Positions 4,140 to 56,209 of a stretch of 64,000 nt of DNA are shown piece by piece. Origin of the DNA: Chlorops oryzae (Eukaryota; Arthropoda; Insecta; Diptera; Chloropidae); NCBI GenBank assembly GCA_020466095.1, contig CM035806.1, forward strand, positions 128,727,679-128,791,678, given 5' to 3'. Position numbers and translations under genes: made by a program. Positions within the stretch are counted from its first letter, which is position 1. Each line of letters starts with the position of its first letter. The notes beneath the pieces are model-generated. The model was not told where the DNA came from. It was given only the letters and a program-made list of their open reading frames with translations, and did no database searches.

Positions 4140-5678
4140 TGCATGGAATGCACCTGCTGTTATAGAAGGATTTATAATTGCTGGCCGGTCATTTCTTTTC
4201 AATCTCGAAGAGTACGATGTGTTCGATAATCCACGGGCAAGTGGATTTACATGTCTGCGCAATTTATTGAAGTATTTCTCTTTGATATTGGTGAACGCTG
4301 TTCTACGTTGAGCTCTTTATGGATCTGTTCATTCGAAACAAACCAAGGAGCTCCTGTTATACTTAGTCCTTAGGATCTTAGGCTCTGCTTTTTGAAGGAT
4401 TTCTATATTCGAAGTGCTGGCATTTCCATACAATTGTAAACCATACGTCCATATTGGTTTTATAACTTGGTTGTATAGAAGGATTTTATATTCAAGCTTT
4501 AGAGGAGAGCGGATATTTATTAACCAGTGCAGGCTGTTGGCTTTAAGCTTCATTTGGATTCTCTTCGCTTCGATATGCTTATGCCATGTTAGTCTTTTCT
4601 CCAAATGAATACCGAGATATGTGACTTCCTCACATTGGGGGATGCGTACCTTATTAAGGAAAATGTCAGGAGAAGCTTTTCTATTTAGCGCGAAATTAAT
4701 GTGTTGACATTTAAGCTCATTAATTTTGATACGCCATTTAGATAACCAGCTTTGGATTTGGCTCAAGTGATCTTGGAGCTGAGAAGTTGCGAAACTTATG
4801 TCCTTGTGCCGACTAAGTACCGCTGTGTCATCAGCAAATGTTGAAATCAATATTCTATCGTTATTTGGAATATCTGCTGTGTATACAAGGTAAAGAAAAG
4901 GCCCAACAGCACTCCCTTGGGGGACTCCCGCGTTTATTTGAAAGGTTTTTGTAATAAATGAGTTATGTCTTACTTGAAACGTTCTATGTTTTAAGTATGA
5001 CTCAAAGATCACGTGAAGATTAATGGGAAGTAATCATCTGATTTTGTATAACAGTCCGTTGCCAAACTTTATCGAACGCTTGTTGCACATCAAGGAATAC
5101 TGCAGAGCAGTACTCCCGATTTTCATAGGCAAGTCTAATTTCATTTGTAATCCGATTTACTTGTTCAATAGTACCGTGTTGTTTTCTAAACCCGAATTGA
5201 TGTGGAGGGATAATATTTTGCTCTTGCAGATAAGGTGTTAATTTAGCTATGAGTACCTATTCGAATAATTTTGAGAGACAAGGCAGGAGGCTAATTGGTC
5301 TATAAGAGGATGTTTGGGTAGGATCTTTTCCTGGCTTAGGCACCATTTTAATAACCGACCGTTTCCAATCTTTTGGGAAGTAGCTGAATTTAATAATTGA
5401 ATTAAATAAGACTGTTAAAAACTGAACTGCTACGGATGGTATATTTTTTAACATTTTTGGAGTGACAAGATCAAGTCCCGGGGCTTTTTTGCAGACAAGT
5501 TCATTTTTTATGATACCGGCAATTTCTCTTGAACTGATTTGTATGGAAATTCTACGAGTGTTTTCGGACAAAGTTGTGAGAACATGCTCAGCATTGCTCG
5601 TATTTGGTTGGAATACTTTATTGAGGTGCAAAGCAAAAACCATAGCATTCTCTTCATCTGAGCGCGCCAATTTTATAG
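4140..5678 (-). pseudogene. Jockey LINE reverse transcriptase (broken)
   Basis: The minus-strand frame 5257-5685 carries the RT fingers (SSYRPISLLPCLSKLFE), and 4329-5012 carries the palm and thumb (GVPQGSAVGP, then FADDTAVLS with the catalytic DD). The enzyme copies the LINE RNA at the nicked target. Frames between 5012 and 5257 disagree: compared with the second copy at 47.3-50.1 kb there is a small extra insertion in the text near 5053, plus point changes. The C-terminus is also frameshifted near 4350. This copy cannot make a full RT. Confidence 0.88.
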
Positions 5679-5863
5679 CAGTCAAACTTCCTTATAATGA
5701 AGTCGCACGGGACCAGAAAATCACTTCATTATATAGAAATTTCATTTTACAGAAATTATTATCACGTGCACTGAAAGTGAAACGAAAAAGCTGTGCGTTT
5801 GAAATTATTTCATAGTAGGGAGAACTTCATTGTATAGACGTTCACTATACGGAAGTTCGACTG
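5679..5863. mobile_element. pogo/Tigger-like MITE inside the LINE
   Basis: A 185-bp insertion with inverted ends: CAGTCAAACTTCC at the left and CAGTCGAACTTCC read from the right. The subterminal sequences are also mirror-like (TATAATGAAGT against TATACAATGAAGTT). It is absent from the other LINE copy. The LINE around it also lacks about 390 bp present at 49204-49586 of the second copy, between endonuclease and RT. CAGT-type ends resemble pogo/Tigger elements, but a target duplication could not be read unambiguously. Confidence 0.65.
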
Positions 5864-6620
5864 TAGTATGAATATGCGCACTTATGTGCTTTTTGTATGT
5901 TAACCAATTTGTGCCTGCATCTGTTAAGCTGGGTTTAATTGATTTCGGATATTTGTTCAAAACGAATACAACCGGGGAATGATCTGAGGAGAGATCGGTT
6001 GTTGCTTTTGCGGAAATAAGCACTCTTGAAATACCTTTAGTTATTCCAAAATCTAAGAGGTCTGAACTTTTTTGGAGATCTGTTGGCCAATAAATTGGCT
6101 GTCTGGGAGATACAAAGTCTAGAGAATTGTTTTTATTGACAATTGCTTTGTATAATTGCTGACCCTTTGGATTGCACGTTTTGGAACCCCAGAAAGTGTG
6201 CTTTGCATTATAGTCTCCTGCTGCTAGAAACTTTTCACCTAATGTCTCAAAGTATTCCACGAAAATTTTTTCCGTTACACTAAGCCGAGGTCGGCAATAA
6301 ACCGCCGATAAAGCCAGATGTTTACCTCTCAATATTACGCAAAGCGTTGTTGCCTGAAGGAAATCATAACTGTACGAATATAGAAGAAAATGTTGTATTC
6401 TTCTATCAATAAGTATACCCGTGCCTCCATGCGCCTTGCCATCTGGGTGGTTGGTTTGATAAAATATATACCCGGGGATTGAGAAGAAATTTTTGTTTGT
6501 TAAATGAGTTTCAGAGAGAAGCATAACGTCAACTTCTTCCTGATTTAAGAAATTCTGAAGTTCAAGCTTATGCTTGGGTAATCCGTTCGAATTCCAGGCA
6601 CACATTTTTAGGAAATTCAT
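5864..6620 (-). pseudogene. Jockey LINE AP-endonuclease (partial)
   Basis: The start of LINE ORF2. The protein begins MNFLKMCAWNSNGL and shows the apurinic-endonuclease signature in order: an Asn in WNSNG, Glu in SETHL, Asp and Asn in GDYNAKH, and the Asp-His pair in SSDHSP. It would nick target DNA to prime reverse transcription. The frame leaves the LINE at the MITE junction (5863), so the link to RT is lost. The ATG at 6620 overlaps the gag stop in the sequence ATGA, a stop-restart arrangement. Confidence 0.88.
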
Positions 6621-7376
6621 ATTTTAGCCAAAAGTGCTGTCATTAATTGTGTTTGCATTTGCACAATTCTGTCGAGTGAGCTTTGCATTGTTTGCATAAA
6701 TTGGGACAAACTTTGAGTTAGAGTAGATATCATTATCTCAAGACTACTGTTGTTGTTAGTAGGAGCACTAATAGGGGTCGCGGGTTTTAGTGCATTTGCA
6801 TAAGAAACTCGTGGAGTTACGGGGTTCAAATTAAGGTTGTCAGAGGATAAAGGTACCGAAACAGTAATATTTTTTGTAGGATTACGAGCTGATTCTTTTT
6901 TAATATTGATTCGTTTTTCAGATCTTGATAAACTAGACAACCTCTGAAATTTGCAGAATGATTTCCTTCGCAGTTACTACATTTAAGTAAATTGCGATCA
7001 TTTTTTGATTTTTATCACAGACTGAGCTGTGATGAAGCTCGCCACATATTACACACACGGTCCGCAATGTACAATACGATTTTTTGTGTCCAAATTCTTG
7101 ACAGTTGGCACAATGTATGGGACCATTTCTTTTGTGTGGCTCTTCTACCGTTATTTTACGATGCAACAGGAATTGCAAATTGTATATCGGATGGATTTCG
7201 TTTTTTTTTTTTTTAAGTTTTAAGCTGTCCGGCAACAAATCAACTTTTAACATAGGCTGAGGAATTTTTGCTTTGTTAAATATATTTATAACCGATCTTG
7301 CGTGAAACCCTTTTTCTTCTAGCGCACTCTTTATTTCGTTTGTGTCAACATCTGCTTCAATACCTTTGATCAACAC
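6617..7376 (-). pseudogene. Jockey LINE gag, C-terminal part, frameshifted
   Basis: Two overlapping minus-strand frames (6933-7376 and 6617-6940) together give the C-terminal part of a Jockey-type gag. The first has an RRM-like stretch, then zinc knuckles CANCQEFGHKKSYC and CVICGELHHSSVC. The second continues to the end of gag. The frame change near 6935-6940 is a single-nucleotide shift. The N-terminal part of gag is absent. Its role is RNA binding and assembly of the LINE RNP. Confidence 0.85.
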
Positions 7377-9318: not shown

Positions 9319-11068
9319 CAGACCTGTTAAATCCCGATTAAGATTAATAATCATGAATTATTGTTCTTTTTTTAATCCATAATCATTATTAATTTAACTT
9401 CTTGAAATTTTTGATTATTAATGATTGCGATTACCAAATAATCGTGAAATAATCAGGACTATTTCAGATTAATAAAAAAAATCAGAAAAAATCAAAAATA
9501 ATCAAAAAAATAATCCCGATTAATTTTAGATTATTTTTGAATATTTTTGAGTTTTTATACCCGACACACTCTGTGTCGAGGGTATATTGCGTTTGTGTGG
9601 TTGTGTGTAACACCCAGAACTAGTCGAGATAGACCATTCAAAATATATATAGAGATGATCAGGGTTGCCAGGAGATTCGATTTAGACATGTCCGTCCGTC
9701 TTTCCGTGTGTTTGTATACAGTTTTCTTATCGCAGAAGTTGAGCTATCTTGACGAAATCTGGTATGCGTGCTCATGAGGACATGGTTAAGAGCAAGTTTG
9801 AGAATGGACCTGATCGGACCATTTTTAGGGGTACCTCCAGTACTAGGGTCTGTTATGAAAATCATGAAAACTGCTCTAAAACCGATGTTTTTTCAAGATA
9901 TTTTGATGAAATTTGATATTTGATCATATTTAAAGGCCAGTAATATTATTTCCGAAAATTGGAAAATTGGGCGTGGCAGAAGGGCGGTTTTTCGAAAATT
10001 GTCTCCTACACCCGAAATTCAAATGGGACTTGAACGAAATTTGGCACTTATGCTTCCTTTGTAGCCTTAAACATCCTTCCAAAAAATTTTCTTGATCGGT
10101 CCATTTTTAAGGGTACCTCCAGTACTAGGGTCTTCACAAAAAATCCCAAAACTGCCTTAAAATCGGACTTTTTTCGCAATATTTTAATGAAACTTAGAAT
10201 TTGAGCGTATATTCAAGCCCCCGATTAGAATTCAAAAAAATTGGAAAAGTGGGCGTGGCAAAAAGGGCGGTTTTCATAAAAAAAATCTATCAAAGGTCGG
10301 TATATTGGGGCCTCTACTGGCCTTAAACACCTCTGGATATTAAATGTTATTTGAACATGTGTGTCGTGTCGGGTATTCTATTGTCAGGCTCGCCTGACTA
10401 TAACACCCTTACTTGTTTTGATTATTTTTGATTTTTCCTGATTATTTTTGGGTTTTTTGATTTTTTTTGATTATTTTGATTTGTTCTGATTTTTTTATTA
10501 ATTTTAATTATTTTCAATTTGTAATTGAATATAATTAAATGTAGTACAGCGAGGGCCCATATGTCCTTGCCTATGACATCGCAATGTAAAATTCGCCTCT
10601 CCAAAGTATTGCCGGTGGTTTGACGAGGGGTGGTCCTAACCACAGGTGGCCGGTGAATTCACTTGTCCGGTGCCGGTCCCACGGACTATAGGGAAACTTT
10701 GGAAAAACGATGTTATTCAATTACAAATTGAAAATAATTAAAATTAATAAAAAAATCAGAACAAATCAAAAATAATCAAAAAAAATCAAAAAACCCAAAA
10801 ATAATCAGGAAAAATCAAAAATAATCAAAAAAAAATCAAAAATATTCAAAAGTAATCTAAAAATAATCGGGATTATTTTTTGATTTTTTCTGATTTTTTT
10901 TCATTAATCTGAAATAATCCTGATTATTTCATGATTATTTGGTAATCGCAATCATTGATTAATATAGGTCATACAAAAATAATCATTAAATAATCACTAT
11001 TTCACTCATAAGAAAAAAATAATCTGATTAATTAATCATTAATTAAATAATCATTATTTAAAGGTCTG
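9319..11068. mobile_element. hAT-type foldback element with long AATC-rich arms
   Basis: The element starts CAGACCTGTTAAAT, ends with the inverted repeat CAGACCTTTAAATA, and is flanked by exact 8-bp duplications GTTTTTAG at 9311-9318 and 11069-11076. Its arms are long inverted repeats built of AATCAAAAATAATC-type units. The inner arms, about 10420-10526 and 10717-10828, differ by only about one base in roughly 95. A GC-richer core of about 190 bp (10530-10716) sits between them. The left arm was later split by a Helentron-like element (9556-10418). No transposase is encoded. Confidence 0.8.
9556..10418 (+). mobile_element. Helentron-like interspersed element, family A copy 1
   Basis: It starts with TATACCCGACACACTCTGTG, a stem-loop pairing TATACCC with GGGTATA, and ends with a GTCAGGC/GCCTGAC stem followed by CTTACTTGTTTT. 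Internally it has ACACCCAGAA, ATGTCCGTCCGTC and two copies about 281 bp apart of the block GGGTACCTCCAGTACTAGGG. It lies inside the left arm of the foldback at 9319-11068, so it is younger than that element. It is non-coding. Confidence 0.82.
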
Positions 11069-11211
11069 GTTTTTAGATTTTTTATTTTGAACAGTCCTTG
11101 AAGTATCCTTGAAAATCCTTTTTAATAAGCCTTTTGGTCAAAATTTTATATCTCAAGAACTAATTAAGATAAGAAGATGAAAAAACGTTGGTTGATTGCT
11201 AATATAACAGG

Positions 11212-11723
11212 TGTTGTGAGGATTTTACCGAAATCCCTCACTCGCCTATCGGACCGAATTTTCTAAAGAAAACGCTCTTTAGTTTTATAATTTATCATTA
11301 TTTATTAAACGATTATCTACAACTGTTAACTGCAACTTATATTTAGCAACTGATTTCAACTGACTCTTAGTTTAGAATACAAAAGCTTATATACTAATTA
11401 TTCTATATATTTAAACCTAAGTCTGCGCTCTGCAGACGCTGATTTGTTCTTCGGGAACGGTGTCATGGGCCTGCTGACGCATGCTGATCTGTCCAGGTGT
11501 GCTTCCGGGTTTGTTGGTCGTTTTGTTCCCACGAACATTCGATTCTCATATTCCATAATTCGCATGCTCGGCGATTCTGCGTAAGGTCACCTATGTTGTA
11601 AAGTTGCACTTGGCACGCTTGTATGAAGGTCCAAAATGCCAGCTTGCATTTTTGGCCGTCTGCCGTCGCTAGCGGTATTTCGTAAGCTACAAGATGAGCT
11701 GCTCTGCTGTTTGACTCATAACA
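11212..11723 (-). repeat. 3' LTR of the gypsy-type element
   Basis: It matches the repeat at 20901-21414, beginning TGTTGTGAGG and ending CATAACA as written on the plus strand (TG...CA ends). The element is transcribed right to left, so this is the downstream LTR. The polypurine tract abuts it at 11724. Confidence 0.93.
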
Positions 11724-11737
11724 TCCCTCCCCCTTTT
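11724..11737 (-). other. Polypurine tract of the gypsy-type element
   Basis: On the minus strand the bases immediately before the 3' LTR read AAAAGGGGGAGGGA. This is a classic polypurine tract that would prime plus-strand DNA synthesis. Confidence 0.8.
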
Positions 11738-12199
11738 GAAGACGATGCCACGTTTTGGCATTCAAATTAACGGTGGAAGGTAAGTTTGTCATTGCTATTG
11801 TAAGGATTGCCGCAAAAGCCATCTTAGTGTTTTGAGTCATCTGTTATAGGAAGATTGGCTGCTTGTTGGGATCCGACAGGAAAACTATTTATTTGGTCCC
11901 AAAATTTTAAGTGGTTTAACTTTCATATTTTTGTTGGTGCAACTCTGGAACTGCTCGAACTTCCGACTAACGTTTTGAGTTTTCTTGTTTCTGGTTCTGG
12001 TAGGTGAAACCTTACGCCATATTGGTTAATTACGAAGCTTGTGGTCAGCATGGTCAGCATCCCATCGATGTCCTCTCCTGCGTCATTCTGCTATAATTCG
12101 ATTGAGACAGTTGGAGTGTGTTTTTATCACTATTTAATTTTTAATTTGATTTTTTTTTTTTTTTTTTTTTTTTATAATTCTTTTTTTTTTTGCATACTT

Positions 12200-12248
<49 letters not shown>

Positions 12249-12847
12249 ATGGGTTTCTCATGTTCAATTTATTTATTATTTTTCTTTCTTTTCTTTTTTT
12301 TCATTAAATATTTTCTTTGTTTCAACTGTCTCCCACCTGTAATTTACAAAAATTTTACTTACAGATTATAATCTATATTTTAATTTTATAATATATTAAT
12401 TGATAATATTCTTAATTATATAATTCAGTTTTAAGCTACTAATTTTTCGATTTTTCTTACAACTATATACATATATGTTATCGAAATTTTAGTCTTTTAT
12501 TGCAATTTAAATTTTACTATTAGTATGATCTATTTAAATTTCATGATTTCGAACATTTTGAATTTTAAATTTTGTATGTTTTTCCTCAGAATATTTTTCC
12601 ATTCAAATATTATATTTTTTTTAATAATTTTGAATGATTTTATATATTTTTATATTTATAATTTGTTGGAATAATTCGCTTTTCTTTTCTTTAAACTTTG
12701 AAGTGCAACTAGTGGGAAATTACTCCTTTTTTATGTGAAGTGTAATGTCAAATTTTGTTAATTTAGATACTTGATTTTTTTTTTTTTTTTTTTATTATTA
12801 TTATTATTATTCTTTTTTTTTATATGTATATCTCCAATTTCCTCTTA

Positions 12848-12878
<31 letters not shown>

Positions 12879-13516
12879 AATTTTTTCTTACCAATCACTC
12901 TTCCCCTCTTCTTAGTTTGGAAACTAAATTAAATTTAGAAATTTCAACACTTTCAATTGAGTTTCCAAATTTTAGAAGGGAAATTTTACGTCTGATATCC
13001 ATCGTTAAGCCTCATTGGTCTTCCTGAAAAGAAAAAGAAAACATGAAATTATTCCCTACCTGTGTTACAACTATTCTCGTGTCCCTACCTTTATTTCGGC
13101 TGTTCAAATTGAACTTGACAGTTTTTAATTTTTGCATAACTACTTTCGAACTTGACCTATTTATTTTTCTTTTGACTGTCTTTTGGTGGTTTGAGTTTAA
13201 TTATTATTTTCTTATTTTTCCGATATTGCAATGTCAAGTGCACTATATAAAAGAAATTGTGTTTGCTCATCAACATTTACTTCGCGGCTGGCTTTAACTG
13301 AACAGAATAAACAAAAAAAATTATTTTGCTTTTATTGTGTCTTCGCTTGTTTTGATATGCGAGCACTTTTGTCTTGAACAGAAAATTGTTAATTTTTTTA
13401 TTTTTTAAAGATATGTAATTGTCGCGTGGTGGAGCTTAATTTCTGGTAGCGCCAGTTTGAAATAGGATCGCTTCGAAAATAAGAAAAAGCAAAGAATGAA
13501 TTTATTCTATAAATTT
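11738..13516 (-). other. A-rich 3' region of the gypsy-type element, no env
   Basis: About 1.8 kb between the end of the phosphatase domain and the polypurine tract. Long T runs on the plus strand (12149-12244, 12779-12795, 12848-12875) are A runs in the sense direction. Frames here are homopolymer artefacts such as poly-Phe. I see no envelope-like ORF, signal peptide or fusion segment. Confidence 0.6.
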
Positions 13517-13640
13517 TCATTTAAGTAGTACTTTAAGGGCCTGGTAACAAAATATGTATTGTGTGGCGTTTGGAATTGCTTGCGCCCTTTGTGCACGTAT
13601 TTTGTTTACTATTTCCGTACCTTTATGTTCTTTTTATTTT
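13517..13640 (-). pseudogene. C-terminal end of the phosphatase domain, out of frame
   Basis: The main ORF stops at 13609, just after the catalytic loop and its following helix. In another frame the sequence continues to a stop at 13517-13519 and encodes the usual end of a classical tyrosine phosphatase, including QYIFCYQAL and the Gln that corresponds to the catalytic Q-loop. One inserted or missing base in the A-rich run at 13628-13640 explains the break. The domain is therefore essentially complete in content. Confidence 0.8.
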
Positions 13641-15147
13641 CTTTCAAATCTAAGGCGATATTTAAAGCTATAAAAACGCATGTTCTACCTATGCCTGCAG
13701 CGCAATGAACTATCATCGGCGGCGGATTTGTTATATTAGTAGTTAACCTCTTTTGATTTTCCTTAACTAATCTTATAAATTGCCATAATAATTTAGCATT
13801 TGGTATGCCTTGATCGGCCCAACACTTAAATTGCCAATGGTAAATTTTTCTAGAAGTTTCTGATTTTTGATCGTATAGTTCTAATTCCGTACAAACAAAA
13901 TTCTTGTTTTCATTTTTATTGAGCGTTTTAACGCGAAATTGGGAAAATATTTTGGTGGAATTTACGTCAGCTTCCCAGTATCTAGCACATTCTCTCGACT
14001 TCGTGAGCATAACTATGGTATTACAATTTTGCTCCCATACCATTTGCCAGAAGTCTTGTATAGAATTTTCGAGAGGTCCCTGCGTAGCTATATATGACTT
14101 CGTCTTTTTGTATCCATCCACAAAACTAGCATGAATATATCCTGATATATTCTCCTGATGTGGTGATAATTTTACACGACTGTGGTCAAAACAAGGTACG
14201 TTCTTATAGCGATTCTTTTCTGAATTTCCTAAAAAATGTTTAAAAGATCCCTTGACTGGAATTCGAATCAATTGTGCATGCTCTTCGGTTAGCTTGCGGT
14301 TAATATCTTCTGCCTCTTTCCCTGCTTTTATATATTGAATGTTCGTTTTTTCCTGATTGACTTTTAACAAATTTCTGTGGAATGTTTTTTCTTTGCCCTT
14401 GATTAAAATTCTAGCATTTACAGAAGTGGGAAGTGATACGACTCTATAAGGTCCCTCCCAAATAGGCGAAAATTTATTCTTTCTGGTTTGGTTTTTCAGC
14501 CAGACCTTATCTCCTACCTTAAATTCTCTAATTTTCGATCCCTTATCATAGTATATTTTCGAATTTTGCTTTCCTTTTTCTTGATTTTGTCGAACTAATT
14601 CATGCGTTCTTTGAATCTGGTACTTTAATATTTTCGAATAATCATCAATATTGTATAGAGGAGCGGGCTTCCTTTTTAGATTAACAGGTACATCAAAGTC
14701 GAAACCAAAAAGTGTTTTGCTAGGCGTTTGTTTCGTAGTGCTGTGTACAGTATTATTGTGTACATGCATGGCATGATGAAGCCAATCATCCCAATTTGTA
14801 CCGTCTTCTTTCGCAAAAGTTCTTAAAAATTCGGCTAATGGTCTATGGCTTCTTTCTAAAGCACCATTGGCTTGCGGATGATATGGAGAAGTTTCTATTT
14901 TCTTAATTCCCATTAGCTTGCATACTTCCTTAAAAAGTTTTGAAGTGAAGTTTGTGCCATTGTCAGTGACAAGAATTCGTGGAATATTGAATTTTGAAAT
15001 TACTTCGTTAAAAAACGCTTTTGCTACTGTCGATGATTCTGCATCGGGAATGCCTGTACATATGAAAAATTTTGAAAAATCATCTAGAAATGTAAGAATA
15101 TATTTATTACCGCTTGAAGTGACTGGTAGGGGACCCACCATGTCCAT
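13609..15147 (-). CDS. Integrase fused to protein tyrosine phosphatase
   Basis: A 512-residue frame. Residues about 1-270 are a retroviral-type integrase: catalytic Asp2, Asp62 in VTDNG and Glu98 (35 residues between the last two), then a GPY module near 231. From about 281 the same frame is a classical PTP domain: KNRYKNV at 311, YIATQGPL at 352, the WPD-loop position as WADQG (Asp445 kept, Pro replaced by Ala), and the P-loop HCAAGIGRT with Cys482 and Arg488. Such a domain would remove phosphate from phosphotyrosine (or RNA/lipid, as some viral homologues do). It lies where env would be. The true start is upstream, because a one-base shift near 15178 separates it from the zinc domain. Confidence 0.93.
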   Translation of the reverse strand: MDMVGPLPVTSSGNKYILTFLDDFSKFFICTGIPDAESSTVAKAFFNEVISKFNIPRILVTDNGTNFTSKLFKEVCKLMGIKKIETSPYHPQANGALERSHRPLAEFLRTFAKEDGTNWDDWLHHAMHVHNNTVHSTTKQTPSKTLFGFDFDVPVNLKRKPAPLYNIDDYSKILKYQIQRTHELVRQNQEKGKQNSKIYYDKGSKIREFKVGDKVWLKNQTRKNKFSPIWEGPYRVVSLPTSVNARILIKGKEKTFHRNLLKVNQEKTNIQYIKAGKEAEDINRKLTEEHAQLIRIPVKGSFKHFLGNSEKNRYKNVPCFDHSRVKLSPHQENISGYIHASFVDGYKKTKSYIATQGPLENSIQDFWQMVWEQNCNTIVMLTKSRECARYWEADVNSTKIFSQFRVKTLNKNENKNFVCTELELYDQKSETSRKIYHWQFKCWADQGIPNAKLLWQFIRLVKENQKRLTTNITNPPPMIVHCAAGIGRTCVFIALNIALDLKENKKNIKVRK

Positions 15148-15775
15148 AAATATCTTATCAAAAGGCGTTGGGAAATTTTTGTGAGAACCATCGGCATTTT
15201 CTCGACTTTTGAACTTTTATTTTTCTGACAGAGTTCACATGTTTTCACGTAATCTTTTATTTGTTTTTGCATGCCTTGCCACTTAAATTGTTTTCTAATT
15301 CGCAAAAACGTCTTCATTGTCCCTTTATGACCTCCTATGGGTGAATCATGAAATGTTTTAAGGACCTTTACAATCTCCTTTGGGTCAGTTAAAACTTGTG
15401 CCATGTCTTCTTCAATATTTTCATCAGTTATTTCATCAGGGTTTTCTTTAGCCTGAGCTCTTGTTACTACAGATATTGTGCTGTCGATATGTGGAATTCT
15501 ACTCAAAGCGTCAGCGTTTTGATTATTTTTTCCCGGCTTATAAAAAATTTCAAAATCGTACTCTAAAAGTTTAAGGCGAAAACGACCTAGTCTCGAATCT
15601 TGTTCCTTTAAATTGGCTATACCTTTTAATGGCTTATGATCGGTGTATATTTTGAAAGGTCTCCCCAATAAATAGGTCCTAAAATTTTTCACAGCCCAAA
15701 CTATTGCCAAAAATTCTTTCTCAATTGTAGAATACCGTTTCTCAGTTTCACTTAACGCTCTGCTGGAAAATAAAT
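15084..15775 (-). pseudogene. RNase H C-terminus and integrase zinc domain of gypsy-type pol
   Basis: The frame 15084-15710 begins within RNase H (IYTDHKPL, then DALSRIP) and continues into the integrase HHCC zinc finger (His in FHDSPIGGHKG, then CELCQKNK). RNase H sequence upstream to about 15775 is readable in this frame without an ATG. Frame breaks at about 15770 (to RT) and about 15178 (to the integrase core) are single-base shifts. Its roles are RNA removal during reverse transcription and integrase multimer binding. Confidence 0.85.
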
Positions 15776-16648
15776 AGGCAAATCTTCCCCTGGTTCTCCT
15801 TGCGAGAGAACAGCTCCTAAGGCTTCATTACTAGCGTCTGTTGTTAGAACAAAAGTTTTCGAAAAATCTGGATATTGAAGTAAAGGAGGTGAGGTTACCG
15901 CAGCTTTAAGCTGTTCCATGGCCTTCTGACAATCATTATTCCATTCAAACTTAACGTTTTTTCTTAATAATTTGTTTAGTGGAACTGAAATTTTTGCCGC
16001 ATTTGGTATAAATTTGCGATAATAATTGATTAATCCAAGGAAAGCTTGTAACTCTTTTACATTTCTGGGTGGTGATATTTTTTGTACACTTTCTACCTTT
16101 AGTGGATCTGGCAGCACGCCTGATTCCGAACATTTATGCCCTAAATATATAACTTCTTTTTTAAGAAATTGACATTTCTCTGTTTGAAGTTTTAAACTGT
16201 TATGTCTTAAGACTTCAAAAACCTTACATAATCTTTCTTCATGCTCTTCTAAATTCCTAGCATAAATAACGATATCATCAAGATAAACAAAACAATCAAT
16301 TCCCTGCAAACCAGTGAGAATGCTATTCATTATGCGTTGAAAGGTTGCAGGTGCTCCCGTGAGCCCAAAAGGCATTCTGGTAAATTCAAAATGTCCCATT
16401 CCCGTGCTAAATGCTGTTTTCTCTTTATCTTTTTCTTCGATAAGCACTTGATGGTATCCGCTGGCTAAATCTAAAGTTGAAAAATACCTACTGCAACCCA
16501 ACTGATCGAGAATTTCATCTATTCTCGGTATCGGAAAAACTTGTTTAACGGTAATATCGTTCAACTTTCGGAAATCTACCACAAGTCGCCATTTCTTTTC
16601 CCATCGGCACCGGCCTTTTTCGGTACTAACAATATCGGAGAATTCCAA
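15752..16648 (-). pseudogene. Reverse transcriptase of gypsy-type pol
   Basis: A 298-residue frame with the RT core: VVDFRKLND, TLDLASGYHQ (Asp60), FTRMPFGL, and the active site VYLDDIVIY (Asp124-Asp125). It continues through the connection domain to the start of RNase H (LTTDASNEALGAV). It is joined upstream to the protease ORF by a one-base shift in an A run near 16600, and breaks downstream near 15770. The catalytic residues are intact. Confidence 0.92.
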
Positions 16649-18367
16649 GGAGACTTGCTTGGAGAAATAATGCCATCTTTAAGCATTTTGTCAACCTGTG
16701 AGGTTATTTCTGTTTTATGCACTTCTGGTAGTCTATATTGCCTAATATTAACTGGTGGCTGCCCTGGTTCTGTTGCAATTTCGTGTTTTAGAACTGTCGT
16801 ATATGAAAGCTTATCCTCACTCAAATGAAAAATATCAGAATATTCTCTGAATACACTCTTTATAGATTTTAATTCTTCTTCGTTTAAATTATTATCTAAA
16901 CGTACTGTTTCCATAATCAATTGAAAACGATCATTCATTTTCTCATCTTTTTTGACAAAATTTATCCCTGTTTTTCCTAACTCCTCATAATCCCTAAGAA
17001 GAGTGTAATTTAGCTCCTTTAACTGTCCAAATTTTACATTTTTTCTACTTGCATTCAGAACTGGTACAAATCCCTTTCCCTTTTTGATTCTTGTTATTAC
17101 ATTTCCAACGTATACTCCTTGCAAAATTTCTTGCTTATGTACCACTATATCTCCTGATTCAATATTAACCTTAATTGGAATTATTTTTGAAGTTCTAGCG
17201 TTTATCGTAATTGACTCAACTACGCATATTCTTCTAGTCTCTTGCTCTGAACAAAGTGGTAATCTTGCGATTTCCTTGCTATTTGCGAAAAATGAAATCG
17301 TCTTATTAACTCCATTCGTAACCGAACGGGTCCACAGTTCATCTCTACCCAAAAGTCCATCTGCTGGTACTTTGCTACCAAATGGAAGTACGTGCATATT
17401 AAAATTTAATGCTTTGTTTTCTTGGTGAGATATCCTTACAGCTCCCTCTGTACTAATACTACCACCAAATGCTCCACCTAATTGCTTAACCTCTGACCTG
17501 TCAACTTCAACTTCTTCTTTTAAGACTTCAGATTTGAGCAAACTAGTGTCTGCCCCTGTATCGATAAGCAGAGTTAATTTATCATTTTTAGCTTGTCCAC
17601 ACGGAAATACTATAAATGCATCATCTGATCGACATCCCTCATCTATGGTTAAAGAATTTGTTGAACTGTCAAAGTTGTTTAGTTTTAGGTCTTTGAGCAG
17701 CCTTTTCTTCTTAATTGACTCTGACTTACTCAATTTTCTATTTAAATGCAATTCCATTATTTTTCTTTCTAAAACAACTAAACCCTTTGAAAGCGACTCT
17801 TGTAGACTAGTACACAAAATAATCAACATACTTAATAGTATGATCCATCCCTTGGTGAAAAATTGCTTTACACATGAATCACTAGAATATGATATTTCAT
17901 AAACATCTCTTGGATAGGTATACTCAACAACTTGTTCAGAAAATGTAACCTTCTTATTATTTTCTTTTCGCTTTCTAACGGAACATATAGGCTCGCTTAG
18001 CCTAACGTATGTTTTTTTCATTCTCCTTCATCTGCTCACTGCTACACAGTGGCTGACTTTTGTTTATTTTAACAGTGGAGTCTTCGACTTCAATTTTATT
18101 TATATCCAGTTCCAATAGCGACTGTGACTGACAAGATAAGCTTGATTTTTCCTCTGTGCTTCTTTTCATATTTTTTAATTCTATTTTCTTAAGTTCATTT
18201 TTCTGCACATTGCCGCCACCGGGTACTGGAATAGGCCTTAATTTTTCTAATCTATTATCGGCTTTCCGGTCTACTGGCCTTGACCGGGCCGTGTATAGTT
18301 TCCCTGACTCTGAGTTGCGGACGGACAATTTGGTGAAATATGGCCAAACTGTTTGCATTTGTAGCAC
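16576..18367 (-). pseudogene. Pol N-terminus with aspartic protease, gypsy-type element
   Basis: Two frames (18002-18367 and 16576-18021) belong together across a shift in an A7 run at about 18010. The first overlaps the end of gag by about 100 nt in a different frame, as expected for ribosomal frameshifting into pol. The second (481 aa) carries the retroviral protease LLIDTGADTSLL (Asp154), the flap region and GLLGRDEL, then the N-terminal RT fingers (SPWNSPILLVPKK). Oddly, residues about 58-73 form a hydrophobic, membrane-like segment before the protease. Confidence 0.87.
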
Positions 18368-20372
18368 TGCCTATTATCAATTCTAAGAGCCCCTTGACCA
18401 TTTTTGGGTACATTTTGACGATCGTTAAACCTGCTTTGTCCTCTATTGTCGTACGTAGTAGTGTTTTGACTTTGTGTTTGATTGCTATTCTCTCTACTTA
18501 GATTCTGTGTTTGAAAATTATTCGCCTTCATACTGCAAAATTTATTAGCTAGGTGCCCGCCAATACGACATATGTGGCAATACATTTCTCTCAACTTTAC
18601 TAGACAATTTTCGGTAAATGGCCTTGTTTTTTACAAAAAGTACAACTTAATTTCTGGCGTTCCTCTTGGCCGCATTGCGATCCTCTTTCATGACCGTAAA
18701 TGCTACATTTTTCGCAAAAAGGAGTATTTAATCTTGTCTTACAGTGTGCATAAAAATGTCCTGATTTTTTGCAAAAACTACAAACGCTATCCTCTTTGAG
18801 CAGATCCTCTACTAAATTGATTTCGTTTACTTTGCAGCCTATTCGTGACTGGATTCTTTCGACAAAATCTACTAACTGACCAATGGAATCATTTTCCCTT
18901 CCAGCTAACATTTGCTCAAGTGATCGATCTCGCAATCCTTTAATAAAGGCATTTACCCCAAGATCCTTAAAAAAGACCTCCATATTATCTAATCCATAGG
19001 TTTCTTTTACGAATTCATTCGCTTCTTTTAATAATTCCTCTATCCTGCTACCAAAAAGGACCACTGGCTCACTTGGGCCTTGCCTAATGTTATCTAAGTC
19101 TGCCCTTATTTGGTCTAGAGTCCTTGCTTTAGCATAATTTTGTTTTATAAATTCGCAAAATTCGTCTATTGATGAAAATTTTTTCTCCCCAACCCGCTTA
19201 TGCGCCTTTCCAAACAATCTCAGCTTTATGCATTCTATTGCGAGCTCTGTGTCTCCAGGTGAGACTTCTCTCTTCAACAATTGACACCCTTGTATAAATT
19301 TATCTACTTCTATTTTAAGCTCTGGACAAGATGTTCCTGAAAAGATTGGCACTAGCATGTCAACTACCTTTTTCATTTCACTGACTAATGTTCTCATTGA
19401 AGACACGTGTATGTGGCTCGGACGATTATATTCTCTGACTGCGATGGGCTCATTTACTTTTGGAATGTTACCGAGGTGTGAAACTCTCTCTTGTGGACTG
19501 TTATCTCTCAAACTATTGTCATTTCTTTGGTTGGCACCAAATTGAAAGAAATGTTCTAAATTAGCTCTCGCGGCTGAAAAATTTGAATCTGATTTGGTAT
19601 GTTTGTTCTGCATCATATCAGTTTTTGGTCTTAACTGATTTGATTGACCTGCTGAGGGTGGAGGCGGGGGTGGCGGTATTTGTGTAGGTGTTGGCTGTGG
19701 AGTCAACGAAGGACTTAATGAATGTTCCCCTGAATATTCTATTTGACTTGGAGTCAGTTTTGAGATTTCGATACCAGCTTCTGATAATTCTTTTGATAAT
19801 GGTGTTAAGTTACCGGTCGCTTCGATATGTAATGTTAATTCGTTATTGTTAGACATTTGAGGACGACCAATGTTACTATTTTCGTGGTTGGCACAACGTA
19901 ATCTCTCCTTCAAATGCTCTATTTCTGCTTTCTGTTCAACGATCGTTTGTCTATTTTTTTCAAATAGGTTTAACTGTCCTGCGCTAAAATTTTCTTTTAA
20001 TAAAAGTTCCCTTAGTCTGTCGTTTTCTAGTTTTTGTTCTTCCAAGGATGAATCTGAACCCGCTAACGCGTCCTTTAATTTTTTGTTCTGTGATTTCAAT
20101 AATTTATTGCTAAGCTGTAATTTTTCTAATTCTTTTTCGAAAGCTTTACTCTTTTTATCACTTGCGCTTTCTCTTATATGTTCAAGTACTATGTCAAATT
20201 TCTCTTCTTGAGTTTTACCTTCTATTTCACTGCGAACTGAATTTAAAAATGATCTTTTCTTATTTACTGACTCTAGGACTTCCCACAATTGTCTAAAATA
20301 ACTAGCAGTTAAACGTTCATAAGTGAATACTTCTTGCTTTAAATTTTCTATAATTGCGCTATTTCCTTCCAT
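18271..20372 (-). pseudogene. Gag of the gypsy-type element
   Basis: The main frame is 590 aa from an ATG at 20372. It has a long coiled-coil-like region (about 85-175), a proline-rich stretch (PTPTQIPPPPPPPS), a capsid-like middle, then zinc knuckles CSFCKKSGHFYAHC, CEKCSIYGHERGSQC and a third starting CTFCKKQGHLP. Inside the third knuckle, near 18603, a one-base deletion shifts the frame. Frame 18271-18594 continues with CHICRIGGHLANKFC and CYKCKQFGHISPNC. Five knuckles is high for a gypsy gag. Its role is RNA packaging and particle assembly. Confidence 0.87.
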
Positions 20373-20884: not shown

Positions 20885-20896
20885 ACCGGCTGCGCC
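20885..20896 (-). other. Primer-binding site, tRNA-Ser type
   Basis: On the plus strand the sequence CCGGCTGCGCCA ends four bases before the 5' LTR (20901). Read on the minus strand it is TGGCGCAGCCGG, complementary to a tRNA 3' end including CCA, most like tRNA-Ser. The tRNA assignment is from memory of fly elements and was not searched. Confidence 0.7.
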
Positions 20897-20900
20897 AATA

Positions 20901-21414
20901 ATGTTGTGAGGATTTTACCGAAATCCCTCACTCGCCTATCGGACCGAATTTTCTAAAGAAAACGCTCTTTAGTTTTATAATTTATCATTATTTATTAAAC
21001 GATTATCTACAACTGTTAACTGCAACTTATATTTAGCAACTGATTTCAACTGACTCTTAGTTTAGAATACAAAAGCTTATATACTAATTATTCTATATAT
21101 TTAAACCTAAGTCTGCGCTCTGCAGACGCTGATTTGTTCTTCGGGAACGGTGTCATGGGCCTGCTGACGCATGCTGATCTGTCCAGGTGTGCTTCCGGGT
21201 TTGTTGGTCGTTTTGTTCCCACGAACATTCGATTCTCATATTCTCATAATTCGCATGCTCGGCGATTCTGCGTAAGGTCACCTATGTTGTAAAGTTGCAC
21301 TTGGCACGCTTGTATGAAGGTCCAAAATGCCAGCTTGCATTTTTGGCCGTCTGCCGTCGCTAGCGGTATTTCGTAAGCTACAAGATGAGCTGCTCTGCTG
21401 TTTGACTCATAACA
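20901..21414 (-). repeat. 5' LTR of the gypsy-type element
   Basis: 514 bp, matching 11212-11723 except for a 2-bp difference near 21243. It would contain the promoter and start of transcription for the element. The target duplication CAGG follows at 21415. Confidence 0.93.
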
Positions 21415-21446
21415 CAGGAAATCAAAAAAAATTTTTTTTTAATTTT

Positions 21447-21586: not shown

Positions 21587-22295
21587 AACAAGTAAGGGTG
21601 TTATAGTCAGGCGAGCCTGACAATAAAATACCCGACACAGACACACATGTTCAAATAATTTTTAATATCAAGAGGTGCTTAAGACCATAAGGGCCCCCAT
21701 ATACCGACTTTTGATAGATTTCTTTATGAAAACTGCCCCTTTGCCACACCCACTTTTCCAATTTTTATTGAACTATAATCGGAGGCTTAAATATTCGCTC
21801 AAATTTTAAGTTTCATTAAAATATTTCGAAAAAGTCCGATTTTAAGGCAGGTTTGGGATTTTTGTGACAGACCCTAGTACTGGAGGTACCCTTAATAATG
21901 GACTGTTCAAGGAAATTTTTTGGAAGGATGTTCAAGGCTACAAAGGAAGCATAAGTGCCAAATTTCGTTCAAGTCCCACTTGAATTTCGGTTGTACGAGA
22001 CAATTTTCGAAAACCGCCCTTCTGCCACGCCCACTTTTTCAATTTTTGGAAATAATACTACTGGCCTTTAAATATGATCAAATATCAAATTTCATCAAAA
22101 TATGTTGAAAAACTTCGATTTTAGAGCAGTTTTTGTGATTTTCGTAACAGACCCTAGTACTGGAGGTACCTCTAAAAATAGTCCGATCGGGCCATTCTCG
22201 AACTTGTTCTTACTCATGTCCCCGTGAGCACGCATACCAAATTTTGTCGAGATAGCTCAACTCCTTCGATAAGAAAACTGTATACAAACAGACGG

Positions 22296-22337
<42 letters not shown>

Positions 22338-22486
22338 GGACGGACATGTCTAAATCGAATCTCCTGGTGACGCTGATCATTTCTATATAAATATATTTTG
22401 TATGGTCTATCTCGACTGGTTCTGGGTGTTACACACAACCACACAAACGCAATATACCCTCGACACAGAGTGTGTCGGGTATAAAA
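21587..22486 (-). mobile_element. Helentron-like interspersed element, family A copy 2
   Basis: It begins AACAAGTAAGGGTGTTATAG with a GTCAGGC/GCCTGAC stem, and ends GTGTCGGGTATAAAA with the paired TATACCC stem. It has two internal CCTAGTACTGGAGGTACC blocks and a GACAGACA microsatellite at about 22290-22345. It is non-coding. It lies between the gypsy-type element and the host exon, in opposite orientation to copy 1. Confidence 0.82.
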
Positions 22487-23101
22487 AGAAGTTTACATCG
22501 GCTAAGCCGATTGCACACATACCTTTTCCTCAGCCTAAAATATGTTGAAACATAACCCTAACAAAAATTCCTGCAGTACAAAATTTTTGCGAATGGTGGT
22601 CATGGTCAAAGTTTAACCATAAGTGACGACTTTATTTGGTGGCTAAATACACAATCAGAAGAAGCAGCAAAAAAAATCATTTTTGTATACAGATATGAGA
22701 ATAAGAGAAAGAGTGTATTTTTTCTAATGTGTAGGATAATGACCATAGTTATAGCGATGTCGCAATTTCTTTTCAGCCAAAGCTTAAGTCTACTAGCTTA
22801 AGTCCGAACGGAGAGGTAGCCCGACAACTTACAAATTTAGGAGCACGCTAACATTCTGTCTCGTCACACCAAACTGAGGCGACTTGCGTTCACACAATAC
22901 ATTAATTCAGTTATTAATTTGATCACAGCGTTCAATTTCAGGACATGCAAATGAATGTTGAAAGTTCAACGATGCGAGATCAATTCTACCAGTCTCCCCA
23001 AGCTCAAAATATTTCAGATGGATGTTAGCTCCGTGGAAAAATAAGAAAAACAACGCCATCCACACGTGCGTATTCTTTTCAATCAAAGTAGGTACATTCC
23101 A
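22487..23101 (-). other. Intron sequence of the host gene (inferred)
   Basis: The exon at 23108-23492 ends at a splice donor, so this stretch is the start of its intron if the gene is real. No further exon is recognised between here and position 1. Confidence 0.4.
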
Positions 23102-47668: not shown

Positions 47669-49107
47669 TTATGGATGTGCATGGATTGCACCAGCTGTTG
47701 TAGAACGATTTATAATTGCTGGCCGGTCATTTCTTTTCAATCTCGAAGAGTACGATGTGTTCGATAATCCACGGGCAAGTGGATTTACATGTCTGCGCAA
47801 TTTATTGAAGTATTTCTCTTTGATATTGGTGAACTCTGTTTTAACCAGTTCTACGTTGAGCTCTTTATGGATCCGTTCATTCAAAACAAACCAAGGAGCT
47901 CCTGTTATAGTCCTTAGGATCTTGGACTCTGCTCTTTGCAGGATTTCTATATTCGAAGAGCTGGCATTTCCATACAATTGTAAACCATACGTCCATATTG
48001 GTTTTATAACTTGGTTGTATAGAAGTTTCATATATTCAAGCTTAAGAGGAGAGCGGCTATTTATTAACCAGTGCAGGCTGTTGGCTTTAAGCTTCATTTG
48101 GGTTCTCTTGGCTTCAATATGCTTACGCCATGTCAGTCTTTTGTCCAAATGAATACCGAGATATGTGACTTCCTCACATTGTGGGATGCGTACATTATTA
48201 AGGAAAATGTCTGGAGAAGCTTTTTTTTGAGCGTGAAATTAATGTGTTGACATTTAGGCTCATTAATTTTGATACGCCATTTAGATAACCAGCTTTGGAT
48301 TTCGCTCAAGTGATCTTGGAGCTGAGAAGTTGCGATACTTATGTTCTCGTGCCGACTAAGTACCGCTGTGTCATCAGCAAATGTTGAAATCAATATTCTA
48401 TCGTTATTTGGAATATCTGCTGTGTATACAAGGTAAAGAAAAGGCTCAACAACACTCCCTTGGGGGACTCCCGCGTTTATTTGAAAGGTTTTTGTAATAA
48501 ATGAGTTATGGCTTACTTGATACGTTCTATGTTTTAAGTATGACTCAAAGATCGCGTGAAAATTAAAGGGAAGTAATCTTCTGATTTTGTATAACAGCCA
48601 AACTTTATCGAACGCTTGTTGCACATCAAGAAATACTGCAGAGCAGTACTCCCGATTTTCATAGGCAAGTCTTATTTCATTTGTAATCCGATTTACCTGT
48701 TCAATAGTACCGTGTTGTTTTCTAAACCCGAATTGATGTGGAGGGATAATGTTCTGCTCTTGCAGATAAGGTGTTAATTTGGCTATGAGTAACTTTTCGA
48801 ATAACTTTGAGAGACAAGGCAGGAGGCTAATTGGTCTATAAGAGGATGTTTGGGTAGGATCTTTTCCTGGCTTAGGCACCATTTTAATAACCGACCGTTT
48901 CCAATCTTTTGGGAAGTAGCTGAATTCAATAATTGCATTAAATAAGACTGTAAAAAACTGTACTGCTACGAATGGTATATTTTTTAACATTTTTGGAGTG
49001 ACAAGATCATGTCCCGGGGCTTTTTTGCAGACAAGTTCATTTTTTATGATACCGACAATTTCTCTTGAACTGATTTGTATGGAAATTCTACGAGTGTTTT
49101 CGGACAA
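47669..49107 (-). pseudogene. Jockey LINE reverse transcriptase, copy 2
   Basis: The frame 48133-49107 covers SSYRPISLLPCLSKLFE, the QAFDKVW motif, GVPQGSVVEP and FADDTAVLS. The frame 47669-48148 continues through the thumb to the C-terminus (IINRSTTAGAIHAHP). A frameshift near 48225, in a T run, separates them, and another lies between 49107 and the endonuclease. Confidence 0.9.
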
Positions 49108-49152
49108 AGTTGGGAGAACATGCTCAGCATTGCTCGGATTCGGTTGGAATAC

Positions 49153-50070
49153 CTAATTGAGGTGCAAAGCAAAAACCATAGCTTTCTCTTCATCTGAGCG
49201 CGCCCATCCACTGTTGAGACACCGAACGGGTGTTTCACTCTGTACTGGGGTCTTCATAGAGCGGCTTGCCAACCACAAGGAACTACGATTTGAGCATCTG
49301 GGCGTAAGGTTCTCGACAAAGTTGCGGGTTTTACATTCTTTCTCCCTATTTAAACTTGCTCTTAGCTTGTTTTCTACTTCTTTTAGCTTGTTTTTGGCCA
49401 ACGGAGAACGGACCCGCTGCCATTCGCGCCTGAATCTTCGTTTTTCTGCGACGAGATTTTCAATTTCCCTATTAGAGAAGGCGTGTTTTGTTCTATATTT
49501 AGTATGAGGAGTCGATTTTTGCGCTGCTGATGCCAAATAAGAGTTAAAAACAGTTACGGCATCGTCAATATGATCAATGCATTCAATTTTATAGTTAGTA
49601 TGAATATGCGCACTTATGTGCTTTTTGTATTTTAACCAATTTGTGCCTGCATCTGTTAAGCTGAGTGGGCGTTCTACTGGTTCCGGATATTTGTTCAAAA
49701 CGAATACAACTGGGGAATGATCTGAGGAGAGGTCGGTTGTTGCTTTTGCAGAAATAAGCTCTCTTGCAATACCTTTAGTTATTCCGAAATCTAAGAGGTC
49801 TGGAATTTTTTGGAGATCTGTTGGCCAATAAGTTGGCTGTTTTGGAGATACAAAGTCTAGAGAATTGTTTTTATTGACAATTGCCTTGTATAATTGCTGA
49901 CCCTTAGGATTGAACGTTCTGGAACCCCAGAAAATGTGCTTTGCATTATAGTCTCCTGCTGCTAGGAACTTATCACCTAATGTCTTAAAGAAGTCTAATA
50001 ACATTTTTTCGGTTATGCTAAAACGAGGTGGGCAATAAATCGCCGATAAAACCAGATTTTTACCTCTCAC
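49153..50070 (-). pseudogene. Jockey LINE endonuclease, C-terminal part, copy 2
   Basis: A 305-residue frame. It begins inside the AP-endonuclease and shows GDYNAKHIFWG and SSDHSPVVFV, then the linker toward RT. The N-terminal Asn and Glu motifs are missing because of 5' truncation. Confidence 0.88.
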
Positions 50071-56140: not shown

Positions 56141-56209
56141 GAGCGGACAAATCGTGATATACAGAGAGAGGGGGAGGAGGGGGTGTTGCGATTGGATGAC
56201 GAATATTAG

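What the first reader, a model, noticed from the sequence alone, without database searches (positions are those of the whole stretch)
13517..15147. Protein tyrosine phosphatase domain fused in frame to a retrotransposon integrase
Seen: one open frame runs from a DD35E integrase and its GPY module straight into a classical PTP domain with KNRYKNV, YIATQGPL, a WAD-type loop with the general-acid Asp, and HCAAGIGRT. The end of the domain (QYIFCYQAL) is in a second frame one base away. Known: PTPs of this kind occur in insect cells and in some insect viruses (bracoviruses, baculoviruses). I know of no Ty3/gypsy element that carries one. Inferred: a host or viral PTP was captured at the position of env and kept its catalytic residues, so it may act on host signalling, RNA 5' ends or particle maturation.
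Basis: partly seen in the sequence, partly recalled or inferred. Interest (0 to 1): 0.93.

Follow-up and report, generated by a model that had tools for sequence, protein, structure and literature searches.

The report
Retrotransposon integrase fused to tyrosine phosphatase
An insect-like genome holds many copies of retrovirus-like jumping genes whose integrase ends in a conserved, host-derived tyrosine phosphatase, and several families also carry an envelope gene and a SUMO-cutting protease, so these elements may interfere with host protein modification.

Summary
The window holds a young Ty3/gypsy element (LTRs 512/513 identical, 4-bp duplication) whose last pol frame runs from integrase into a classical tyrosine phosphatase (PF00102, E 2.9e-62). 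In the same 442-Mb genome I sampled 68 of the 150 best PTP hits: 61 of 68 have a related integrase just upstream on the same strand, and 41 of 68 have both in one unbroken frame. Element PTPs plus a relative from an unnamed source form one clade (100/98) beside PTPN9/MEG2 (100/99). Catalytic Cys and Arg are kept in 63 of 63; dN/dS between close branches is 0.26-0.40. The PTP is the C-terminal domain of Pol, where chromoviruses carry a chromodomain. It did not replace env: a Baculo_F-like env lies downstream in 9 of 13 branches and a SENP/Ulp1-like protease in 8 of 13. The window's branch has neither. One supported tree conflict (branch I) points to some shuffling between families. The window copy alone breaks before the PTP's Q-loop; its 19 sampled sister copies do not. 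Phosphatase activity and function are inferred. Ten searches of the held papers found no precedent.

The parts
20902..21414 (-). 5' LTR
   Evidence: 512/513 identical to the 3' LTR, TG..CA ends
11212..11723 (-). 3' LTR
21415..21418 (.). target-site duplication CAGG, 5' side of the element
   Evidence: flanks printed
11208..11211 (.). target-site duplication CAGG, 3' side of the element
   Evidence: flanks printed
20886..20898 (-). probable primer-binding site TTGGCGCAGCCGG
   Evidence: sequence right after the 5' LTR; the same stretch follows the 5' LTR of branch E
11724..11737 (-). polypurine tract directly before the 3' LTR
18600..20372 (-). gag ORF, 590 aa
   Evidence: Retrotrans_gag PF03732 E 2.5e-4, 21.6 bits, under its cut-off of 24.1
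18271..18594 (-). zinc-knuckle part, another frame
   Evidence: zf-CCHC PF00098
16576..18021 (-). protease part of pol
   Evidence: RVP PF00077, 21.9 bits, cut-off 20.7
15752..16648 (-). reverse transcriptase and start of RNase H; frame differs from the protease part
   Evidence: RVT_1 PF00078 E 8.4e-36
15084..15710 (-). RNase H and integrase zinc domain
   Evidence: PF17917, PF17921
14362..15147 (-). integrase core and GPY module, in frame with the PTP
   Evidence: PF00665; aligned to relatives through the GPY module
13618..14226 (-). PTP domain as far as this copy's frame goes (profile 1-204 of 234)
   Evidence: PF00102
13517..13612 (-). last part of the PTP domain in a different frame
   Evidence: three-frame translation; in frame in the sister copies
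11738..13516 (-). AT-rich stretch between PTP and 3' LTR without env or Ulp1-like match
   Evidence: tblastn with env and Ulp1 proteins of other branches, none

Best explanation
A Ty3/gypsy lineage captured the catalytic domain of a PTPN9/MEG2-type tyrosine phosphatase and fused it to the C-terminus of integrase, after the GPY module. It has kept the domain while it split into at least 11 families in this genome. Shown: fusion, copy number, a PTP clade beside PTPN9, retention of catalytic Cys/Arg, dN below dS between close branches, and a separate env-like and Ulp1-like gene downstream in many branches. Inferred: the PTP is made as part of Gag-Pol, enters the particle with integrase, and removes phosphate from tyrosines of host proteins (or of the element's own Gag or integrase) near the particle or pre-integration complex, to favour replication or integration. 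Where present, the SENP/Ulp1-like protease would strip SUMO from host proteins in the same way. The window's own copy has a broken PTP tail and several frame breaks in pol, so it is probably inactive.
For: Fusion and domains. LTRs and duplication. Independent relatives with the same fusion: P0002 (integrase plus PTP start) and P0010 (GPY plus full PTP). Genome: 596 first-look candidates, 150 scored; 33 of the 150 listed rows lie in open frames of 1500 aa or more, 31 of these 33 without a stop in the match (my recount of a typed list). 61 of 68 sampled loci have integrase upstream; 41 of 68 have one frame, and in 40 of those 41 the frame ends 0-10 residues after the matched PTP (in L022 that stop lies inside the domain). 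Cys215 63/63, Arg221 63/63, WPD Trp 63/63, WPD Asp 60/63. dN/dS of the PTP: H1-H2 0.069/0.270, C-D 0.295/1.080, A1-A2 0.033/0.083. Neutral simulation of the window-P0010 divergence: 0 of 300 runs free of stops, mean 7.6; observed mean BLOSUM at mismatches -0.05 against a neutral maximum of -0.13. Trees: element PTPs plus P0010 one clade 100/98, with PTPN9 100/99; PTP-bearing integrases plus P0002 one clade 96/89. Fold: the 11 best Foldseek hits in the PDB are all PTPN9. Env and Ulp1-like genes.
Against: No activity, expression or particle evidence. The 68 loci come from the best-scoring 150 of 596 candidates, which favours intact PTPs. PTP dN is several times that of integrase (C-D: 0.295 against 0.056), so constraint is weaker or selection is different. 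The window's branch has WAD for WPD, lacks 5 residues of the E-loop with the Lys120 equivalent, and has Gly at the Asp48 position (20 of 63 rows); Q262 is not Gln in branches C, D and G. PTP and integrase trees disagree on branch I: with G+H in the PTP tree (94/91), with F in the integrase tree (100/98), so domains were shuffled at least once or one tree is wrong. In the PDB search, two-domain receptor PTP chains scored higher in total (up to 266 bits) than PTPN9 (162 bits). The structure model is of middling confidence (mean pLDDT 68.9, pTM 0.60). A systematic search for integrase copies without a PTP could not be run.
Confidence: 0.6

Rival explanations
1. The fused PTP works mainly as a phosphotyrosine-binding or chromatin-tethering module that steers integration, like the chromodomain of chromoviruses, rather than as an enzyme.
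For: Same place at the C-terminus of Pol after the GPY module (chromodomain position from passages of PMC12440569). The window's branch departs at WPD Pro, E-loop Lys and the Asp48 position, and Q262 is replaced in C, D and G.
Against: Cys215 and Arg221 are kept in 63 of 63 and the WPD Asp in 60 of 63, which binding alone would hardly need.
Confidence: 0.2
2. The PTP is a passenger: an ancient fusion carried along without benefit, kept only because breaking the end of Pol can harm integrase.
For: PTP dN is much higher than integrase dN. The window copy has lost the PTP tail and yet sits between near-identical LTRs, so it may have been mobilised in trans.
Against: Catalytic residues kept across branches whose PTPs differ at more than half of their residues; dN/dS 0.26-0.40 between close branches; 0 of 300 neutral runs kept the frame.
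Confidence: 0.15
3. One-off chimera or assembly artefact in this copy.
For: The window copy has frame breaks in pol and in the PTP.
Against: Recurs at dozens of loci, in two unrelated database proteins, and near-identically in 19 sister copies.
Confidence: 0.01
4. The PTP came from a virus (bracovirus or other) rather than straight from a cellular PTPN9 gene.
For: Bracoviruses hold large families of single-domain, intronless PTPs (passages of PMC3573978).
Against: The nearest named relatives found are cellular PTPN9 of Pomacea and Cimex, and the tree joins the elements to PTPN9; but no bracovirus PTP was in the tree, so this is not a test.
Confidence: 0.15

Closest known systems
Env-bearing insect Ty3/gypsy elements (errantiviruses, insect endogenous retroviruses)
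   Same: LTRs, gag-pol order, and in many branches of this lineage a Baculo_F-like env
   Different: A PTP fused to the end of Pol and, in many branches, a SENP/Ulp1-like ORF; the window's branch has no env match
Chromoviruses (Ty3/gypsy with a chromodomain at the C-terminus of Pol)
   Same: An extra host-type domain at the C-terminus of integrase
   Different: The domain is a tyrosine phosphatase; no chromodomain found by Pfam
Bdelloid rotifer LTR elements Vesta and Juno with captured enzymatic ORF3 (PMC5408684, passages)
   Same: LTR elements that took up enzyme genes: GDSL esterase, DEDDy exonuclease
   Different: There they are separate ORFs with other enzymes, and no departure from neutrality was seen within genomes; here a Pol-fused PTP with kept catalytic residues
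PTPN9/MEG2 (cellular)
   Same: Catalytic domain, by tree and fold
   Different: No CRAL-TRIO/SEC14 domain in the fusion; integrase in front instead
Bracovirus PTP families (PMC3573978, passages)
   Same: Single-domain PTPs in an insect-associated mobile or viral genome
   Different: Not part of a Pol protein; sequence kinship untested

Membership tests
Ty3/gypsy LTR element (Metaviridae) | Protease, RT, RNase H, integrase in this order between LTRs with TG..CA ends, PPT and short target duplication | tested here: met
Ty3/gypsy LTR element (Metaviridae) | Place within a named insect lineage (Gypsy, Mdg1, Mdg3, Mag, CsRn1, Osvaldo) by RT tree | not tested
   no reference RT set was used
Env-bearing insect retrovirus (errantivirus-like) | env gene after pol in the window copy | tested here: not met
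   no env match in window 11701-13520
Env-bearing insect retrovirus (errantivirus-like) | env gene after pol in related families | tested here: met
   14 of 28 copies examined, 9 of 13 branches (G remnant only); PF12259 above cut-off in F and C, just under it in H2, not found in D although D is 69% identical to F; no LTR pair was shown around an env-bearing copy
Classical PTP, PTPN9/MEG2 type | Groups with PTPN9 in a PTP tree | tested here: met
   100/99, 96, 100/100; nearest folds PTPN9
Classical PTP, PTPN9/MEG2 type | CRAL-TRIO/SEC14 domain | tested here: not met
   only rve and PTP-type matches in the 512-aa ORF
Classical PTP, active enzyme | Cys, Arg of the P-loop and WPD Asp | tested here: met
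   63/63, 63/63, 60/63; position names by PTP1B numbering are recalled
Classical PTP, active enzyme | Phosphatase activity | not testable with these tools
   needs an assay
Chromovirus | Chromodomain at the Pol C-terminus | tested here: not met
   no chromodomain match in Pfam scan
Bracovirus-type PTP | Groups with bracovirus PTPs | not testable with these tools
   no bracovirus sequence reached; three viral-contig scans gave no relative
SENP/Ulp1 (C48) protease, for the downstream ORF of other branches | C48 profile and His-Asp-Gln-Cys residues | tested here: met
   PF02902 E 5.2e-14 (D) and 9.2e-14 (B); nearest PDB chain SENP5; residues aligned in branches B, C, D, F, K; triad roles recalled

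The most novel reading that the evidence does not exclude
This is a lineage of complex insect retroviruses (gag, pol-PTP, env, Ulp1-like) that took two eraser enzymes, a PTPN9-type tyrosine phosphatase built into Pol and a SENP-type SUMO protease, and uses them against the host: the SUMO protease against SUMO-dependent piRNA silencing, and the phosphatase, carried in with integrase, against tyrosine-phosphate signalling at infection.
Probability: 0.25. Interest if true: 0.95.

Novelty: new variant of a known kind. Interest (0 to 1): 0.86.

Why it matters
Retroviruses and LTR elements seldom carry signalling enzymes as a fixed part of Pol. A high-copy lineage with a kept phosphatase domain and, in many branches, a SUMO protease would be an animal retroelement with accessory enzymes aimed at host protein modification. 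SUMO is needed for Piwi-mediated silencing in Drosophila (passages of PMC8733420), so the protease makes a direct, testable link to escape from transposon silencing. It also shows that the C-terminus of integrase can host enzymes, not only chromatin readers.

Tried and rejected
Rejected: one-off chimera and assembly break; the PTP as a replacement of env; RNA 5'-phosphatase (classical PTP fold and tree; the baculovirus comparison is recalled).

Led nowhere: viral-contig scans with three queries and the phage collection gave no relative. The genome-contig scan gave 43 loci, all under bacterial or archaeal record titles, 21-37% identical over the PTP, none studied further. The second protein search was swamped by two-domain receptor PTPs. 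Protein searches list only lengths of 0.55 to 1.75 times the query, so full Pol-PTP proteins of about 1600 aa from other species could not appear; distribution in other hosts is therefore open beyond P0002 and P0010, whose sources are unnamed. LTR pairs were sought for 11 other copies: clear for E (759/759), partial for B (155/155), unclear for J (692 nt, 99.6%, ends not TG..CA, and a second integrase-PTP start in the stretch), none found for A2, F (two copies), H2, D, C, I, G. NCBIfam gave no match for the three proteins tried. A patch of 8.3% A1-A2 difference at the start of the PTP against 0.8-2.5% in the neighbouring integrase and PTP windows was not explained. The host's own PTPN9 gene was not located, so introns and source could not be compared. 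Ten paper searches found no report of a PTP in an LTR element; only open-licence papers are held.

Full report
What is in the window. On the minus strand lies an LTR element from 21414 to 11212. Its LTRs match at 512 of 513 positions (one gap), begin TG and end CA, and are flanked by CAGG on both sides. A probable primer-binding site follows the 5' LTR and a purine tract precedes the 3' LTR. Pfam finds zinc knuckle, protease, RT, RNase H, integrase zinc domain and integrase core in the Ty3/gypsy order; gag is only a sub-threshold match. Pol is broken into several frames in this copy. The last frame, 13609-15147, runs from the integrase core through the GPY module into a PTP domain (PF00102, E 2.9e-62) and ends at profile position 204 of 234; the rest of the domain follows in another frame.

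It is not a one-off. A protein search returned 437 proteins, 120 of them listed; two are diverged forms of the same fusion. P0002 has integrase plus the start of a PTP (50% identity over 355 columns), and P0010 has the GPY module plus a complete PTP (43% over 328 columns). A PTP search of the window's own assembly (442,144,510 bases, 1044 contigs) had 596 first-look candidates, of which 150 were scored; 33 of the 150 listed rows lie in open frames of 1500 aa or more, 31 of these 33 without a stop in the match (recount). I examined 68 of the 150 rows: the best 8 and 60 spread down the list. In 61 of 68 an integrase related to the window's lies upstream on the same strand. In 41 of 68 both are in one unbroken frame, and in 40 of the 41 the frame ends 0-10 residues after the matched PTP; in L022 that is because a stop cuts the domain. 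Five of the 68 look like host PTP genes (L001, L002, L040, L061, L068), and two (L060, L064) are element-type PTPs without integrase in the stretch. The sample is biased to good PTP matches.

Where the PTP came from. In a tree of 42 rows the element PTPs (27 rows of this genome) and P0010 form one clade (bootstrap/SH-aLRT 100/98), and with three PTPN9-type references a clade of 100/99. A wider quick tree gives 95 and 96 for 64 and 67 rows. Among single-domain PDB chains PTPN9 scores best (162 bits), though two-domain receptor PTPs score more in total, and the 11 best fold matches of a model of the GPY-PTP piece are PTPN9 (model mean pLDDT 68.9). The nearest named proteins to the junction piece of P0010 are PTPN9-like proteins of Pomacea and Cimex. 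Bracovirus PTPs could not be included.

One capture, some shuffling. In the integrase tree 30 rows of this genome (branch K absent) plus P0002 form one clade (96/89) apart from 14 other integrases. Most of those 14 have ORFs that end soon after the GPY module without a PTP, but what lies beyond in other frames is unknown. PTP and integrase trees agree on A against the rest, C with D, and G with H. They conflict on branch I: with G and H by PTP (94/91), with F by integrase (100/98). So one capture followed by at least one exchange between families, or a tree error, is the reading.

Selection. Cys and Arg of the P-loop are kept in 63 of 63 element PTPs, the WPD Asp in 60, the KNRY Tyr in 59, and the Q-loop Gln in 51. 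Between close branches dN/dS is 0.26 (H1-H2), 0.27 (C-D) and 0.40 (A1-A2). Within branches it is about 0.36-0.7 and mixes in decay; between distant branches dS is saturated or undefined. Integrase is far more constrained (C-D 0.056/1.277). In a neutral simulation to the window-P0010 identity, 0 of 300 runs stayed free of stops. The window's branch (A) has an Ala in WPD, a 5-residue gap in the E-loop and Gly at the Asp48 position, so its activity is doubtful.

More than a PTP. In 30 stretches downstream of the PTP from 28 copies, an env-like gene was found in 14 of 28 copies (9 of 13 branches, only a remnant in G) and a Ulp1/SENP-like gene in 13 of 28 (8 of 13 branches, a short remnant in E); 8 copies have both. 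Baculo_F passes its cut-off in F and C, is just under it in H2 and is not found in D, which is 69% identical to F. The Ulp1-like ORF matches PF02902 (E 5.2e-14 and 9.2e-14), is nearest to SENP5 in the PDB, and keeps the residues I take for the His-Asp-Gln-Cys set in the full-length copies. pN/pS between branches is 0.22-0.32 for env and 0.35-0.56 for Ulp1-like. In branch B the Ulp1-like gene lies before a polypurine tract and a 3' LTR start that matches the 5' LTR (155/155). For env no LTR pair was shown; that it belongs to the element rests on its recurrence at the same place (3 of 3 copies of D, 2 of 2 of C, 2 of 2 of F). Branches A and J, and the window itself, have neither gene in the stretch examined.

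How it may work. Shown by sequence: a C-terminal Pol domain, so it should be made with Gag-Pol and enter particles. Inferred: tyrosine dephosphorylation of host or element proteins near the incoming complex. The Ulp1-like gene suggests a second eraser; SUMO is required for Piwi-mediated silencing in Drosophila (passages of PMC8733420). Nothing here shows activity.

Compared with what is known. Chromoviruses have a chromodomain at this place, and errantiviruses an env likely from baculoviruses (passages of PMC12440569). Rotifer LTR elements took up a GDSL esterase and a DEDDy exonuclease as separate ORF3s (passages of PMC5408684). In PMC13172572, PMC12992720 and PMC3026039 a word search for phosphatase and ulp1 found nothing. 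Ten library searches found no PTP in an LTR element; subscription journals are mostly not held. Verdict: a new variant of a known kind, with high interest.

Noticed in passing
L117:1395-2909, L119:368-1849, L125:37-1581, L127:1176-2711: Env-like genes of about 500 aa, 58-70% identical between branches, downstream of the Pol-PTP frame in other families of the same genome.
   Followed up: partly
L125:1970-2806, L115:434-1324, L133, L137, L138, L148, L150: Ulp1/SENP-like (C48) protease genes in the same elements, with the likely catalytic residues kept; a separate finding in its own right.
   Followed up: partly
9417-10219 and 21829-22487: Long inverted repeats (88-97% in the better pieces) flank the LTR element nearly symmetrically, as if it had landed inside a larger inverted-repeat element.
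   Followed up: no
55361-61452 (-): Two long ORFs of 1136 and 611 aa that read like a BEL/Pao-type element (by eye, no profile run).
   Followed up: no
4329-7376 and 48133-50070 (-): Endonuclease- and RT-like ORFs of two related non-LTR elements (by eye).
   Followed up: no
L027/L028/L045 against L034/L041/L047, about 1200-1400 of the aligned stretch: A sharp patch of 8.3% difference between sub-branches A1 and A2 at the start of the PTP while the flanking integrase and PTP windows differ by 0.8-2.5%, perhaps gene conversion.
   Followed up: no
L121:76-912: A second integrase end plus PTP start just downstream of the branch J PTP, a nested or tandem copy.
   Followed up: no
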